DNA of 64,000 nucleotides from Owenia fusiformis (lineage: Eukaryota > Annelida > Polychaeta > Sabellida > Oweniidae): assembly GCA_903813345.2 (NCBI GenBank), contig CAIIXF020000007.1:3353730-3417729 (forward strand), read 5' to 3'. Position 1 is the first letter of the stretch. Every line of letters starts with the position of its first letter. Below the pieces are notes generated by a model. The model worked only from the letters and a program-made list of their open reading frames with translations, was not told the DNA's origin and did not search any database. A program made the translations under genes and the position numbers. Below, one piece after another: positions 13,201 to 19,200 of this stretch.

Positions 13201-16200
13201 CCAAAAAGTCCCGACTGGGAGGTTTCGGTGGAGTAGATCCTAATTGTTTCTTGAAGGGATTCTTGGTTTTTAATGTTGTAAAACCTGCAGCAAATTTCTT
13301 TTTAAAGTCCTTCAGTCCACTTCCACTTGCGGTGATGGTACTAATATTCGAGTCAGATGATGCCTAAAAATATTAATAAAAATGTGTGTTCTTAACTTAT
13401 AACACAGTATATGAACAAAATGAGTAATTTCCCTATAACTACTAAAAAGCTCCTTGATACAACCTCAGTACTGTTGGGGTAGAATCACATCCCATTTTCA
13501 CACATAAATAAGATACTTGATAAGTTCAAGGATGTACTTACATTTTCAATTTGTTCAGTGGTCAGGTCATGTATATCAATACCAGAAGGCGGAGCATTAT
13601 CGCCCAGTTCTGTCACAGGTTTAGATACAAGTTCAATCATCTTTGTATATTTTCTCTCATTACATTCAAGCTCTGCTATGTCTCGTTTTAATATCTGAAC
13701 TGCACGCTTTTTTACTATGCAACTACAAAAATGATGTTTGATTATATAAGAATACAATTTAAACATACAATTGACATTCATGTCATTGATTCTCTGTGAC
13801 TAGGAGATCCTTACTAATTTTGGAAACTTGAAAACAGCCTGAAGCCTAATTTTCATAAAACAAAATAATTTAAAGGCATTCAAAATATACATTGGGTCTC
13901 ACTTATTTTGATAATTTGAAAAATAAACAGCACATTCACTTAAATCACTCATCCTAATATTTATATAAAATAAATGTACATAGGGTAATATAGTATACAA
14001 GAGAGCATATTCAAGTGCTAATCACCATCTTGGCATTATAAGCACTCTAGCCTAGCGGGGAAAAAGTTGAAGAGGGGTGGAAGGGGGGGGGTCTGAGCTG
14101 GGCTGGGACTGGGGGAAATACAGGGCAGAGGGACAATGTAATTTATAGTTGCAAGACGAGGCAGGGTACAATAGGTTCTAGAATAGTCTTGTTCAATATG
14201 GGGTAAGCCATCTCTTAATAAAGGCAGAAGTCAGAGTAAAGATTTTTGTGTTTTCATCCTTGCTAAAATTACGATTGCCAAAGGCTAGGTATTCTAAAAG
14301 TGTAGATTGGTTTGTGGGGATCAAAGGAGTTTCAGTGTAGAGAGTATTGAAAAAGGTGGTTCTTGCATTTTCATTCAGAGGGCAGTGAAAAAAGAAGTGT
14401 TTTGGAGTTTCGGGTAGACCACAAGAACAGTTAGGAGAACTGATGAAGGTGTAATTGTGGGCAAAGAGTTGAGCTCTGAAGAGCAGGTCTACCCTTAACC
14501 TATTAATAATCATCCTAATATCAACTGATATTATCTACTCATAGATAGAAATGATATTGCCCAAATTCAATTACCTTCTGTTCCACAAATCTTCTGTGTG
14601 TCATTACCTAATACTCGCTACTTTTGACAATGATAATTAATTACTTACTCATTTTTCTGTATTTCATCTAGTTCATTTGCAGCTGGTAGTTGCTGTATCT
14701 CTTCCTCTAAAGTGGCCATCTCTTGCGTTTTCTGCTCAATATGGTTCTGAAAGAGTGCTAGTTGGTCCTGGAACCCACTCAGGCTGAAACAAGATTATCA
14801 TGCAGTTAGGGCACCAAGTTGCATTCACCTTAATGCAATGACTACATTTCACATTCCTCCGCCAAATCATTTTTCACAAATGAAATTGTCATTTACACCC
14901 CCCCCCTTACAAAACAACTTTTATTGTGATATTTCCAGTAACAAGTAACTTATTTGTCTTGTAATGTTTCCACAGTTAAATCATCTAAGGCAATCTGATT
15001 ATTCTTTAATGTTCCCTTATATTCTTCTAACTTACTTATGTTGTAATGTTTCCACAGTTAAATCATCTAAGGCAATCTGATTATCCTTCAATGTTCCCTT
15101 ATATTCTTCTAGCAGATCTTTGTCAAATTCAAATGTCTGGGCACATATTGGATCATCTCTGAAAATAAAATATTAAAACATAATAATATTTGTACATAAA
15201 AATAACTACTGATTGTACTTATTTGATAGTATACACTGAAATCTGTAAAGTGGAACACTTTTCCGAATCCCAAGACGGTTAATGGTAAATGAACCTATAT
15301 AAGTGGAACTCCTCCCAAAAGGTACACTTTGTAGATGCACCAAGTATTTGTATTAAGCTCAAACTGATATACCTGGTAAGCACAGGCATTCTATGCATCA
15401 CCCCAAATGTCATTTGATGAGATAACACAAATCCAACCATTATACACCAAGGATGGTGATATTTGGTGTGCACTTGCTTATTTTTATCAATGAACTCCTT
15501 ATATTCCAAGGATAGTGATATCTGGTGTGTACTTACTTGTTTATATCGATGAACTTCTTGTACTCCAAGGATGGTGATATTTGGTGCGTACTTACTTGTT
15601 TTTATGGATGAACTCATTGTATTCCAAGGATGGTGATATTTGGTGTGTACTTACTTGTTTTTATCAATGAACTCCTTGTATTCCAAGGATGGTGATATTT
15701 GGTGTGTACTTACATGTTTTCATCTATGAACTCCTTATAATCCAAGGATGGTGATATTTAGTGTGTACTTACTTGTTTTTATCGATGAACTCCTTGTATT
15801 CCAAGAATGATGATATTTGGTGTGTACTTACTTGTTTTTATCGATGAACTCCTTGTATTCCAAGGATGGTGATATTTGGTGTGTACTTACTTGTTTTTAT
15901 TGATGAACTCCTTGTATTCCAAGAATGGTGATATTTGGTGTGTACTTACTTGTTTTTATCGATGAACACCTTGTATTCCAAGAATGGTGATATTTGGTGT
16001 GTACTTGCTTGTTTTTATCGATGAACTCCTTGTATTCCAAGAATGATGATATTTGGTGTGTACTTACTTGTTTTTATCTATGAACTCCTTGTATTCCAAG
16101 GATGGTGATGTTTGGTGTGTACTTACTTGTTTTTATCGATGAACTCATTGTATTCCAAGGATGGTGATATTTGGTGTGTACTTACTTGTTTTTATCGATG

Positions 16201-19200
16201 AACTCCTTGTATTCCAAGGATGGTGATGTTTGGTGTGTACTTACTTGTTTTTATTCTTGAACTCCTTGTATTCCAAGGATGGTGATATTTGGTATGTACT
16301 TACTTGTTTTTATCGATGAACTCCTTGTATTCCAAGAATGGTGATATTTGGTGTGTACTTGCTTGTTTTTATCGATGAACTCCTTGTATTCCAAGAATGG
16401 TGATATTTGGTGTGTACTTGCTTGTTTTTATCGATGAAGTCCTTGTATTCAAAGAATGGTGATATTTGGTGTGTTCTTACTTGTTTTTTATCGATGAACC
16501 TCTTATATTCCAAGGATGGTGATATTTGGTGTGTACTTACTTGTTTTTATCGATGAACTCATTGTATTCCAAGGATGGTGATATTTGGTGTGTACTTACT
16601 TGTTTTTATCGATGAACTCCTTGTATTCCAAGGATGGTGATATTTGGTGTGTACTTACTTGTTTTTATCGATAAACTCCTTGTATTTCAAGGATGGTGAT
16701 ATTTGGTGTGTACTTACTTGTTTTTATCTATGAACTTCTTGTATTCAAAGGATGGTGATATTTAGTGTGTACTTACTTGATTTTATCAATGGACTCATTG
16801 TATTCCAAGGATGGTGATATTTGGTGTGTACTTACTTGTTTTTATTGATGAACTCCTTATATTCCAAGGATGGTGATATTTGGTGTGTACTTACTTGTTT
16901 TTATCGATGAACTCCTTGTATTCCAAGGATGGTGATATTTGGTGTGTACTTACTTGTTTTTATCGATGAACTCCTTATATTCCAAGGATGGTGTTATTTG
17001 GTGTGTACTTACTTGTTTTTATCGATGAACTCCTTATATTCCAAGGATGGTGATATTGAGAGGATGGCCTTGTCTAGCTCTGCTTGTGATGATGTAAAAT
17101 CATCTCGTGAAAAGTTTGTATAATTTGAGTATTCCTGTAGTATTTCTTTACTGAAATAACAATAGATATTGTTAATGCTATCTTTTATTATTGTATAACA
17201 AGGAGACATTAAATATGATTAGCAATGACCCTATGTACAGTTCTAACTGTATTATTAAAATTTATGAAAAAGACCTTTTGAATTGACATATTAAATACGA
17301 AAGACATATTTAACTGTCACTCCAGTCAATGAAACACACCAAATACCTGAATCATGAACAGACAAAATAAAAGGCATTGTACATTTGAAAGCTAGGAATG
17401 TGTCTTACAATCAAAGGTAAACACTGGGTTCACGGTTAAAGGGACTTTCCCTGCAAGCCCATTTCTCTCTTTATATGATAGCTAGGAATGTGTCTTACAA
17501 TCAAAGGTATACACTGGGTTCATGGTTAAAGGGACTTTCCCTGCAAGCCCATTTCTCTCTTTATATGATAGCTATGATAGAAATGGACTTGCAAGGAATA
17601 TCCCTTCAAGGTTGAAAACCTCACTGCCAAATTTAACATATTAATATTCAGTCCATTGTCCAATGGGCAACTCATTTTCAAAGTTGCAATTGGCAGTTGG
17701 GAATTGGCAGTCAGGCAGCATTGAGTTTTGAGCCCTGAGGACAGGCCGTAGCCAGAGGGGGAGCTGGGGGAGTACTGTTGACTATACTCCTTGCCCGTAG
17801 CCAGCTTTTACCAGGAGGGGGAGCTTTTTTCCAGGGGGGGAGCTTTTGCACAATTTCGGCTAAAAATCATGCGAAAAATTCTCAGAATGGTGAAAAACTG
17901 CATGATTTTGAAAGAAATTCTGGCCAGGGGGGGGGGGGGAGCTTAGTCAACAGTAAACTGAAAGCCCAAAGTAAATATAAGTTGAATCTGTTCAATTTTA
18001 CTCAATAGCAATGTCCCATGATTTGGGATCCAAACATATCATGATCCATAAAATTGATTGATGAATGATGAATACAGTATGAGAGATCAGAAAGTTCCAA
18101 AAGTCATACTGTTCTGGTTCAACATATTAAATTACAAAAGGATAGTTTTTTTATTATTTAATATCGAGAGAGATTCTTTGATTAATCTTCACAATAGATT
18201 GAAAATAAAACAAGCACTGGTATTTAGCTTGAATAGTGCATATTTTGTCACATGGTTTCGGTATACAATGTTGAAATACCCAAAATAACAATGAAGCTGG
18301 CACGCTGCTGGTGATTAGACAAGCGGACACTTTGAGATCACAAATAAGTATGAAAATGAATGAGGAATATAATATACTCACCATTGTCCAACCATTGACT
18401 CCTGGACCTCTTGATGGTAAGCCAAGAGACCAGGAATCTTTTTCTCCAAGTAATCCTTCTGGTGCAAACTGGCCTCATGTAAGCTGATTACATAGTCATT
18501 ATGGACCTTATGCAATTTCACTGTTGTTTTCAAATACTTTGTTTTGGCTTCTTCGAAAGTCCTCCCAGCTTTACCTGTGAAGCAATGCATTTTAAACAAA
18601 GGATAATTGTTTGATGAAATGTATCATAGACAAAATAATGACCTTTATGTATAACTAAACTGAATAGTTAATTAAACATGTGGCACACTGTTTAGAATTC
18701 ACTAAATTGTCTGACAAGTCAAGTACCAAATTTTCACTAACTCATTTGACAGATTCTAAGCCACTGTGCAACAAAACTGTTGGATCATCTGATTCAATGA
18801 TAATATTTTGGGATTGTGTAATTCGTGATCGTGTTTTATCTCATGATAGCGGATACAGCGCCATCTTCACTTTTAAAGTCAGCCATTAAATGTTCCTATA
18901 TGTAAAATGTATCAATCCCAGAAATCTCCCCAGCATTAAAGCGAGTAGGCGCAGCACCAACCTGAGATTTTGAAAATATGCACCAACTTGAAAATGAGAA
19001 AAATCGGTCTATTTTGGCCAGTTTTGGTCTGAATTGTGAGAATGAGAATTTCGCACCGACTTGAGAAAAAATCCTGTGGAGACCACTGAATTCATTGTAT
19101 AATATAGACATAAAAACTAGTATACACCTTATTTGATTATTTATCGTAAATGAAGAACAAGAACTCTAATACACAAACTAGATATGTGAACTGTGAAGAG

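What the first reader, a model, noticed from the sequence alone, without database searches (positions are those of the whole stretch)
15450..17060. Minisatellite grown from an exon-intron junction, carrying ~27 splice donors
Each 59-bp unit is the last part of a FER exon ([12 protein letters not shown]) plus its donor GTAAGTAC. The intron thus begins with a ladder of near-consensus 5' splice sites, each preceded by authentic exon sequence. Only the first keeps the kinase frame. Such an array could compete for U1 snRNP, change splicing efficiency, vary in copy number between individuals, or buffer the true donor.
Basis: seen in the sequence. Interest (0 to 1): 0.85.

Follow-up and report, generated by a model that had tools for sequence, protein, structure and literature searches.

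The report
Splice-junction minisatellite in a kinase gene
The end of one exon and its splice signal have been copied 27 times in a row into the following intron, a little-studied kind of repeat first described in amphioxus, and similar arrays turned up at other genes sampled in the same genome.

Summary
Window 15447-17057 (- strand) is a 59-bp array of 27.3 copies. Each unit is the last 45 nt of a coding exon of a FES/FER-type kinase plus 14 nt of intron; 22 of 27 units carry GTAAGT, one GTAAGA, four GCAAGT. The unit was found nowhere else in the 498-Mb assembly. The four later donors modelled (2, 3, 10, 27) all give a stop right after the exon. The next exon's tail and donor are duplicated too. 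The kind is known: amphioxus 'mirages' (PMC3087553, PMC3902484; passages). New here: it recurs. Of 13 donor-motif arrays from one fifth of the assembly, 7 (leniently 10) start in a coding exon tail. The genome is probably not amphioxus (no GFP match). Best reading: junction-spanning duplications survive because the exon-proximal donor keeps winning under exon definition, as one of two identical donors does in minigenes (PMC9225289). A regulatory role is possible; nothing here supports it.

The parts
15447..17057 (-). 59-bp tandem array, 27 whole units plus a 17-bp partial unit (15447-15463); unit = 45 nt exon tail + 14 nt intron
   Evidence: only place found in the assembly
17013..17150 (-). 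coding exon E4 (138 nt) of a FES/FER-type tyrosine kinase; its last 45 nt (17013-17057) are the exonic part of unit 1
   Evidence: joins in frame with neighbours
17011..17012 (-). donor 1 (GT), the only donor shown to keep the kinase frame
15476..16953 (-). donors 2-27, one per unit: 21 GTAAGT, 1 GTAAGA (unit 10), 4 GCAAGT (units 11, 12, 18, 27)
15159..17012 (-). intron holding the array, 1854 nt; 319 nt without the 26 extra units
15036..15158 (-). next coding exon E5 (123 nt)
   Evidence: joins in frame
14946..15111 (-). second junction-spanning duplication: tail of E5 plus donor, 82 bp x 2.0, 94% matches; copy 1 keeps GTAAGT, copy 2 reads ATAAGT
18382..18574 (-). coding exon E3, upstream of the array exon; the intron between them is 1231 nt
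14649..14783 (-). coding exon E6, downstream; joins in frame to E5 and to E7
22541..22684 (-). FCH (F-BAR) match of the same gene
   Evidence: 28.9 bits, cut-off 27.8
11696..11863 (-). SH2 exon region of the same gene
   Evidence: position; SH2 6.7e-11; best solved relatives FES 1.6e-11, FER 1.7e-10
7262..10270 (-). tyrosine-kinase exons of the same gene
   Evidence: positions; PK_Tyr_Ser-Thr 1.4e-81 on the joined pieces

Best explanation
A splice-junction minisatellite ('mirage'). A short tandem duplication took in the last 45 nt of a coding exon and the first 14 nt of its intron and then grew by repeat turnover to 27 copies (inferred). The mRNA stays normal because the exon-proximal donor is used: with the one upstream acceptor it defines the shortest exon (138 nt), and under exon definition the donor nearest that acceptor wins among equals (shown elsewhere for two identical donors in minigenes; inferred here). 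Duplications that span a donor with the authentic copy first are therefore nearly silent and can accumulate, and in this genome they have done so at several genes (shown for a sample). On this reading the extra donors have no required function.
For: Anatomy and uniqueness. Units 3, 8 and 21 differ from unit 1 by one synonymous base, so the local sequence cannot single out donor 1. Units 2-27 look unconstrained: 37 nonsynonymous and 14 synonymous differences against an expectation of 122:37. The same anatomy at other genes: 5 of 13 sampled arrays with a Pfam match over cut-off in the frame running into donor 1, 7 of 13 with the tetraspanin-like and the 375-aa frames, 10 of 13 leniently; acceptor-side counterparts L025 and, below cut-off, L027. 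Mechanism: PMC9225289 (abstract and passages). Flanking introns are 1231 and 1854 nt. [quoted passage not shown] passages).
Against: No RNA data, so use of donor 1 is inferred. The cited minigenes have two donors, not 27, in cultured cells; in the same paper, before matching for splice-site strength, the downstream donor was preferred in all four intron classes. The next intron is 252 nt, so this gene is not uniformly long-introned. The motif excess (13 of about 3882 against 7 of about 6888 occurrences, p=0.0095) could mean that junctions are hot spots, which tolerance alone does not predict. No stop codon is seen among the 53 differences in the exonic part of units 2-27, where about 5% would be expected.
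Confidence: 0.75

Rival explanations
1. Poison-donor array: donors 2-27 take a share of splicing, each such event gives a stop after ...[12 protein letters not shown] and decay of the mRNA, so repeat number tunes the amount of kinase.
For: 22 of 27 donors are GTAAGT with equal computed U1 pairing; the later donors modelled give a premature stop.
Against: No constraint is visible on the donor part (intronic 10/378 against exonic 54/1215 differences, p=0.13); similar arrays lie at unrelated genes, which suggests a general process; amphioxus mirages are spliced normally.
Confidence: 0.12
2. Isoform generator: later donors are used on purpose to make a protein cut short after the F-BAR part.
For: The stop falls near the end of the F-BAR part (position judged from recall of human FER; for the stop).
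Against: One later donor would do; in 9 of 11 other exon-linked arrays a stop lies within the first extra unit, and periods divide by 3 in only 3 of 11, so the class does not look protein-extending.
Confidence: 0.04
3. Assembly artefact: the array or its length was made by misassembly.
For: Long arrays are error-prone; one amphioxus mirage was aberrantly assembled in the draft genome (PMC3087553, passage).
Against: 27 non-identical units with unique flanks at one place. The exact number 27 is untested.
Confidence: 0.03
4. Independent satellite that happened to land at the exon end.
For: None found.
Against: Unit 1 is the coding exon itself and no copy was found elsewhere.
Confidence: 0.01

Closest known systems
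Amphioxus 'mirages' (Adh3, troponin C, globins BflGb6 and BflGb9, PGBD5): PMC3087553 and PMC3902484, passages seen; the original Adh paper was not held
   Same: Minisatellite-like tandem copies of an exon-intron boundary, at either exon end; units of 10-160 bp; authentic junction kept
   Different: Copy numbers in the passages seen are small (6 and 3 units in BflGb6, 2-7 in PGBD5), here 27; another gene; genome probably not amphioxus; recurrence at several genes sampled within one assembly
Human IFI6 (6-16) minisatellite with multiple splice donors (Turri, Cuin and Porter 1995; seen only as a reference and one sentence in PMC4526556; unit length recalled as 12 bp)
   Same: A minisatellite that repeats a splice donor at an exon end
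   Different: There two downstream repeats are used as donors and give isoforms; here later donors give a stop
Intron gain by tandem duplication of AGGT (Rogers 1989, Zhuo 2007 and Gao and Lynch 2009, seen as references in PMC3087553)
   Same: Tandem duplication of splice-site sequence
   Different: Needs a new acceptor too; no polypyrimidine-AG was seen in the units here by reading them, so an existing intron grows and none is gained

Membership tests
Mirage (splice-junction minisatellite) | Tandem repeat whose unit spans an exon-intron boundary | tested here: met
Mirage (splice-junction minisatellite) | Authentic junction retained, gene otherwise intact | tested here: met
   E3-E6 and E6-E7 join in frame, SH2 and kinase matched; not every exon of the gene was joined
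Mirage (splice-junction minisatellite) | Regular splicing not disturbed | not testable with these tools
   no RNA data
Mirage (splice-junction minisatellite) | Length instability between alleles or cells | not testable with these tools
   one copy of the locus in the assembly; no reads
Mirage (splice-junction minisatellite) | Cephalochordate genome (where reported; not part of the definition) | tested here: inconclusive
   no GFP-family match, but nothing rang in the tool's controls either; window GC about 34%; COX1 not found
IFI6-type donor minisatellite | Later donors give usable isoforms | tested here: not met
   donors 2, 3, 10 and 27 modelled, all give a stop
Intron gain by AGGT duplication | Duplication provides both a donor and an acceptor | tested here: inconclusive
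   units read by eye hold no polypyrimidine-AG; acceptors were not scored
FES/FER tyrosine kinase | F-BAR, SH2 and tyrosine kinase in one gene | tested here: met
   FCH over cut-off, SH2 and PK_Tyr_Ser-Thr, PDB FES and FER; FES against FER not resolved

The most novel reading that the evidence does not exclude
Splice junctions are preferred birthplaces of minisatellites in this genome, and the arrays protect themselves: each added unit lengthens the intron (319 to 1854 nt here), shifts it from intron definition towards exon definition, and so makes the exon-proximal one of many identical donors safer. Growth would become more neutral as it proceeds, a ratchet that expands introns and stocks them with ready-made splice sites.
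Probability: 0.25. Interest if true: 0.75.

Novelty: new member of a known kind. Interest (0 to 1): 0.55.

Why it matters
It is a natural competition among near-identical donors in one gene: units 3, 8 and 21 differ from the real junction by one silent base, so sequence alone cannot tell the spliceosome which to use and position must. If such arrays are as frequent in this genome as the sample suggests, the cross-exon proximity rule could be tested over many genes, repeat numbers and intron lengths, and they would show how introns can grow at little cost to the mRNA.

Tried and rejected
Amphioxus as source: the GFP family gave no match (no control genome rang either), and COX1 gave none, so the species could not be placed. 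Preservation of donors: not significant (p=0.13). In-frame growth as a general rule: 3 of 11 periods divide by 3; one array (L001, tetraspanin-like, 54 bp) would give an in-frame insertion and L058 a frameshift without a stop inside the unit.

Acceptor-motif survey: 839+764 matches against 149+107 for the reversed motif, but many listed places belong to a dispersed TTTTCAGTACAT-type repeat, so these counts were not used. Three arrays were followed: L025 (VWA over cut-off) and L027 (below cut-off) are acceptor-side; L026 proved to be donor-side with TTTTCAG inside each unit.

Exon-first sample: 30 of the 158 kinase matches reported were fetched (109 kb). TRF rows of three loci were inspected: L058 (49 bp x8.4) spans a junction, its exon judged by acceptor and open frame only; L047 abuts an acceptor but is intronic; L069 was not taken as junction-spanning. 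The other TRF rows were not checked against exons, and many of these loci are single long frames, so no rate is given.

Caveats on counts: arrays were grouped by eye from capped lists; the list was grouped the same way. L001-L012 are one array. L016, L017 and L020 showed no exon and count as misses among the 13. Denominators 3882 and 6888 are genome-wide motif counts scaled by span; array copies inflate them. The genome count of the second control motif was not measured. Pfam was run on selected frames of 6 of the 9 control arrays; the other 3 were read by eye.

Full report
What is there. On the minus strand a FES/FER-type tyrosine kinase gene runs from an F-BAR match near 22.6 kb to the last kinase exon near 7.3 kb, with SH2 (6.7e-11) and tyrosine-kinase (1.4e-81) matches. 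The exons called here E3 to E6 join in frame, and E6 to E7 as well (in one search I had first picked a wrong acceptor for E7). Exon E4 (17150-17013) ends in phase 2 at ACAA|GTAAGTAC. From 17057 to 15447 lies a 59-bp tandem array of 27.3 copies, 92% matches. In this register a unit is 45 nt of exon tail and 14 nt of intron. Of 27 units 22 carry GTAAGT, one GTAAGA and four GCAAGT. Computed pairing to the U1 5' end is the same for donor 1 and 20 other units (-7.4 kcal/mol), -7.0 for one, and weaker for five. Units 3, 8 and 21 differ from unit 1 by a single synonymous base.

Only one place. The whole array finds one place in the 498-Mb assembly. The junction 24-mer with up to two mismatches finds 27 matches, all in this array, and none for the reversed control. 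Both searches have limits (masked stretches; skips common words). A protein search with E4 and E5 also stays within this locus.

Consequences of donor choice. Donor 1 gives an open joined frame. Donors 2, 3, 10 and 27 were modelled and all give a stop right after [12 protein letters not shown], because the intron's GTAAGT reads as G-TAA in this phase. The other later donors lie beyond the same TAA.

How it evolved. The Tyr codon is TAT in units 1, 2, 4, 10, 23 and 27 and TAC in the others; T at both edges suggests that it is older and that C spread inside (inference). Units 2-27 show 37 nonsynonymous and 14 synonymous differences from consensus and no stop, against a transition-weighted expectation of 122:37:9. 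Exonic and intronic parts do not differ significantly in rate (54/1215 against 10/378, p=0.13). So no clear selection on the copies is visible. The next exon, E5, also has its tail and donor duplicated (82 bp x2); copy 1 keeps GTAAGT and copy 2 reads ATAAGT. Two neighbouring donors of one gene were thus hit by different units.

Does it recur in this genome? A pattern of three AGGTAAGT at periods of 48-78 bp gave 654 matches genome-wide and 376 for the reversed motif. The places listed cover C1, C2 and 3.28 Mb of C3 (20% of the assembly) and fall into 13 arrays, all of whose 5' sides were read. In 5 of 13 the frame that runs into the first donor matches a Pfam family over its cut-off: Muted, NIF phosphatase, Cys-loop receptor and MRPL52 and HSP70. 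A sixth matches tetraspanin below cut-off (E=0.016). A seventh is a 375-aa open frame with no family over cut-off. Three more look like exons by acceptor and open frame only (L014, L022, L023), and three show none (L016, L017, L020). Acceptor-side arrays exist too: the last unit of L025 runs into a VWA exon (1.2e-5), and L027 into an exon-like frame (E=0.0006, below cut-off). An exon-first sample of 30 kinase loci contains at least one more donor-side array, L058.

Controls. The reversed motif TGAATGGA gave 9 listed arrays, 7 in the same span. One (24-bp unit) continues in frame into serpin coding sequence, one begins 27 nt inside the putative intron of a transporter gene, and I saw none that spans a junction, though only 6 of 9 were scanned with Pfam. 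A second motif, AGATTGGA, gave 5 arrays in the span and 82 matches genome-wide (106 for its reverse); their flanks were not fetched. Per motif occurrence AGGTAAGT arrays are 3.3 times commoner than TGAATGGA arrays (13 of about 3882 against 7 of about 6888, p=0.0095). The excess could mean that junctions are hot spots or only that genes are; one normalised control does not settle it.

Mechanism. The copies can be harmless only if the spliceosome picks the first donor. Carranza, Shenasa and Hertel (PMC9225289; abstract and passages) report that among donors of near-equal strength the upstream one is preferred under exon definition, and that it was used exclusively in minigenes with two identical CAG/guaagu donors and 365-nt introns; the downstream one is preferred under strict intron definition. 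Before matching for strength they found the downstream donor preferred in all four classes, so the rule holds among equals, which is the case here. The introns flanking E4 are 1231 and 1854 nt, so exon definition and donor 1 are expected. Without the 26 extra units the second would be 319 nt, nearer the border between the modes. The speculative ratchet of the novel case follows from this. In 9 of 11 other exon-linked arrays a stop lies within the first extra unit, and periods divide by three in only 3 of 11, so the class does not look like a protein-extending device.

What is known. Tandem copies of exon-intron boundaries were named mirages in amphioxus (Adh3, globins; also troponin C and PGBD5). 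They can vary in length and are reported not to interfere with regular splicing (PMC3087553 and PMC3902484; passages). The human IFI6 minisatellite provides alternative donors (a reference and one sentence). Of the ten paper searches I saw in the listings no such array in FES/FER and no mirage paper outside amphioxus; listings were partial (15 of 69, 12 of 128, 15 of 63), PMC3188502, which holds the word, was not opened, and most subscription papers are not held. The genome gave no GFP-family match (no control rang) and the window is about 34% GC; amphioxus having many GFP genes and a higher GC is recalled. So it is probably not amphioxus, but the species is unknown.

Verdict. A real and long example of a described but little-studied kind of repeat, most likely tolerated and not selected, in a genome where the kind seems to recur.

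Noticed in passing
window 14946-15111 (-): The exon after the array exon also has its tail and donor duplicated (82 bp x2); the second donor reads ATAAGT.
   Followed up: yes
L001 (G000:C1:442746-443671): Donor array at a tetraspanin-like exon with a 54-bp unit and open frame: use of later donors would add 18 residues per unit.
   Followed up: partly
L026 (G000:C1:20247310-20247610): 49-bp array in which each unit holds TTTTCAG, 26 nt of exon-like sequence and a GTAGGC donor-like site, so each unit could act as a tiny exon.
   Followed up: partly
L037/L038 (G000:C2:29631812-29632803): Serpin-like gene with a 24-bp array (repeat NPFNPEWL) that runs in frame into serpin coding sequence.
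   Followed up: partly
L058 (kinase locus): 49 bp x8.4 donor-side array with GTAAT donors, not caught by the AGGTAAGT pattern, so that survey undercounts.
   Followed up: partly
window 1-559: 45-bp array, 12.5 copies, cut by the window edge; period divisible by 3 and open for 140 aa on the minus strand.
   Followed up: no
window 1550-2329 (+): 259-aa open frame with several KR sites that looks like a neuropeptide precursor (judged from recall).
   Followed up: no
window 14193-14534 (-): 113-aa frame in a kinase-gene intron that resembles the end of a non-LTR retrotransposon protein (judged from recall).
   Followed up: no
window 17386-17574: 90-bp x2.1 tandem duplication in the intron upstream of the array exon.
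   Followed up: no
window 24710-25252: Nested tandem repeats (136 and 290 bp) built around AAAATGGC-type motifs.
   Followed up: no
G000, places listed: A dispersed repeat with TTTTCAGTACAT-type sub-repeats recurs in the acceptor-motif list.
   Followed up: no
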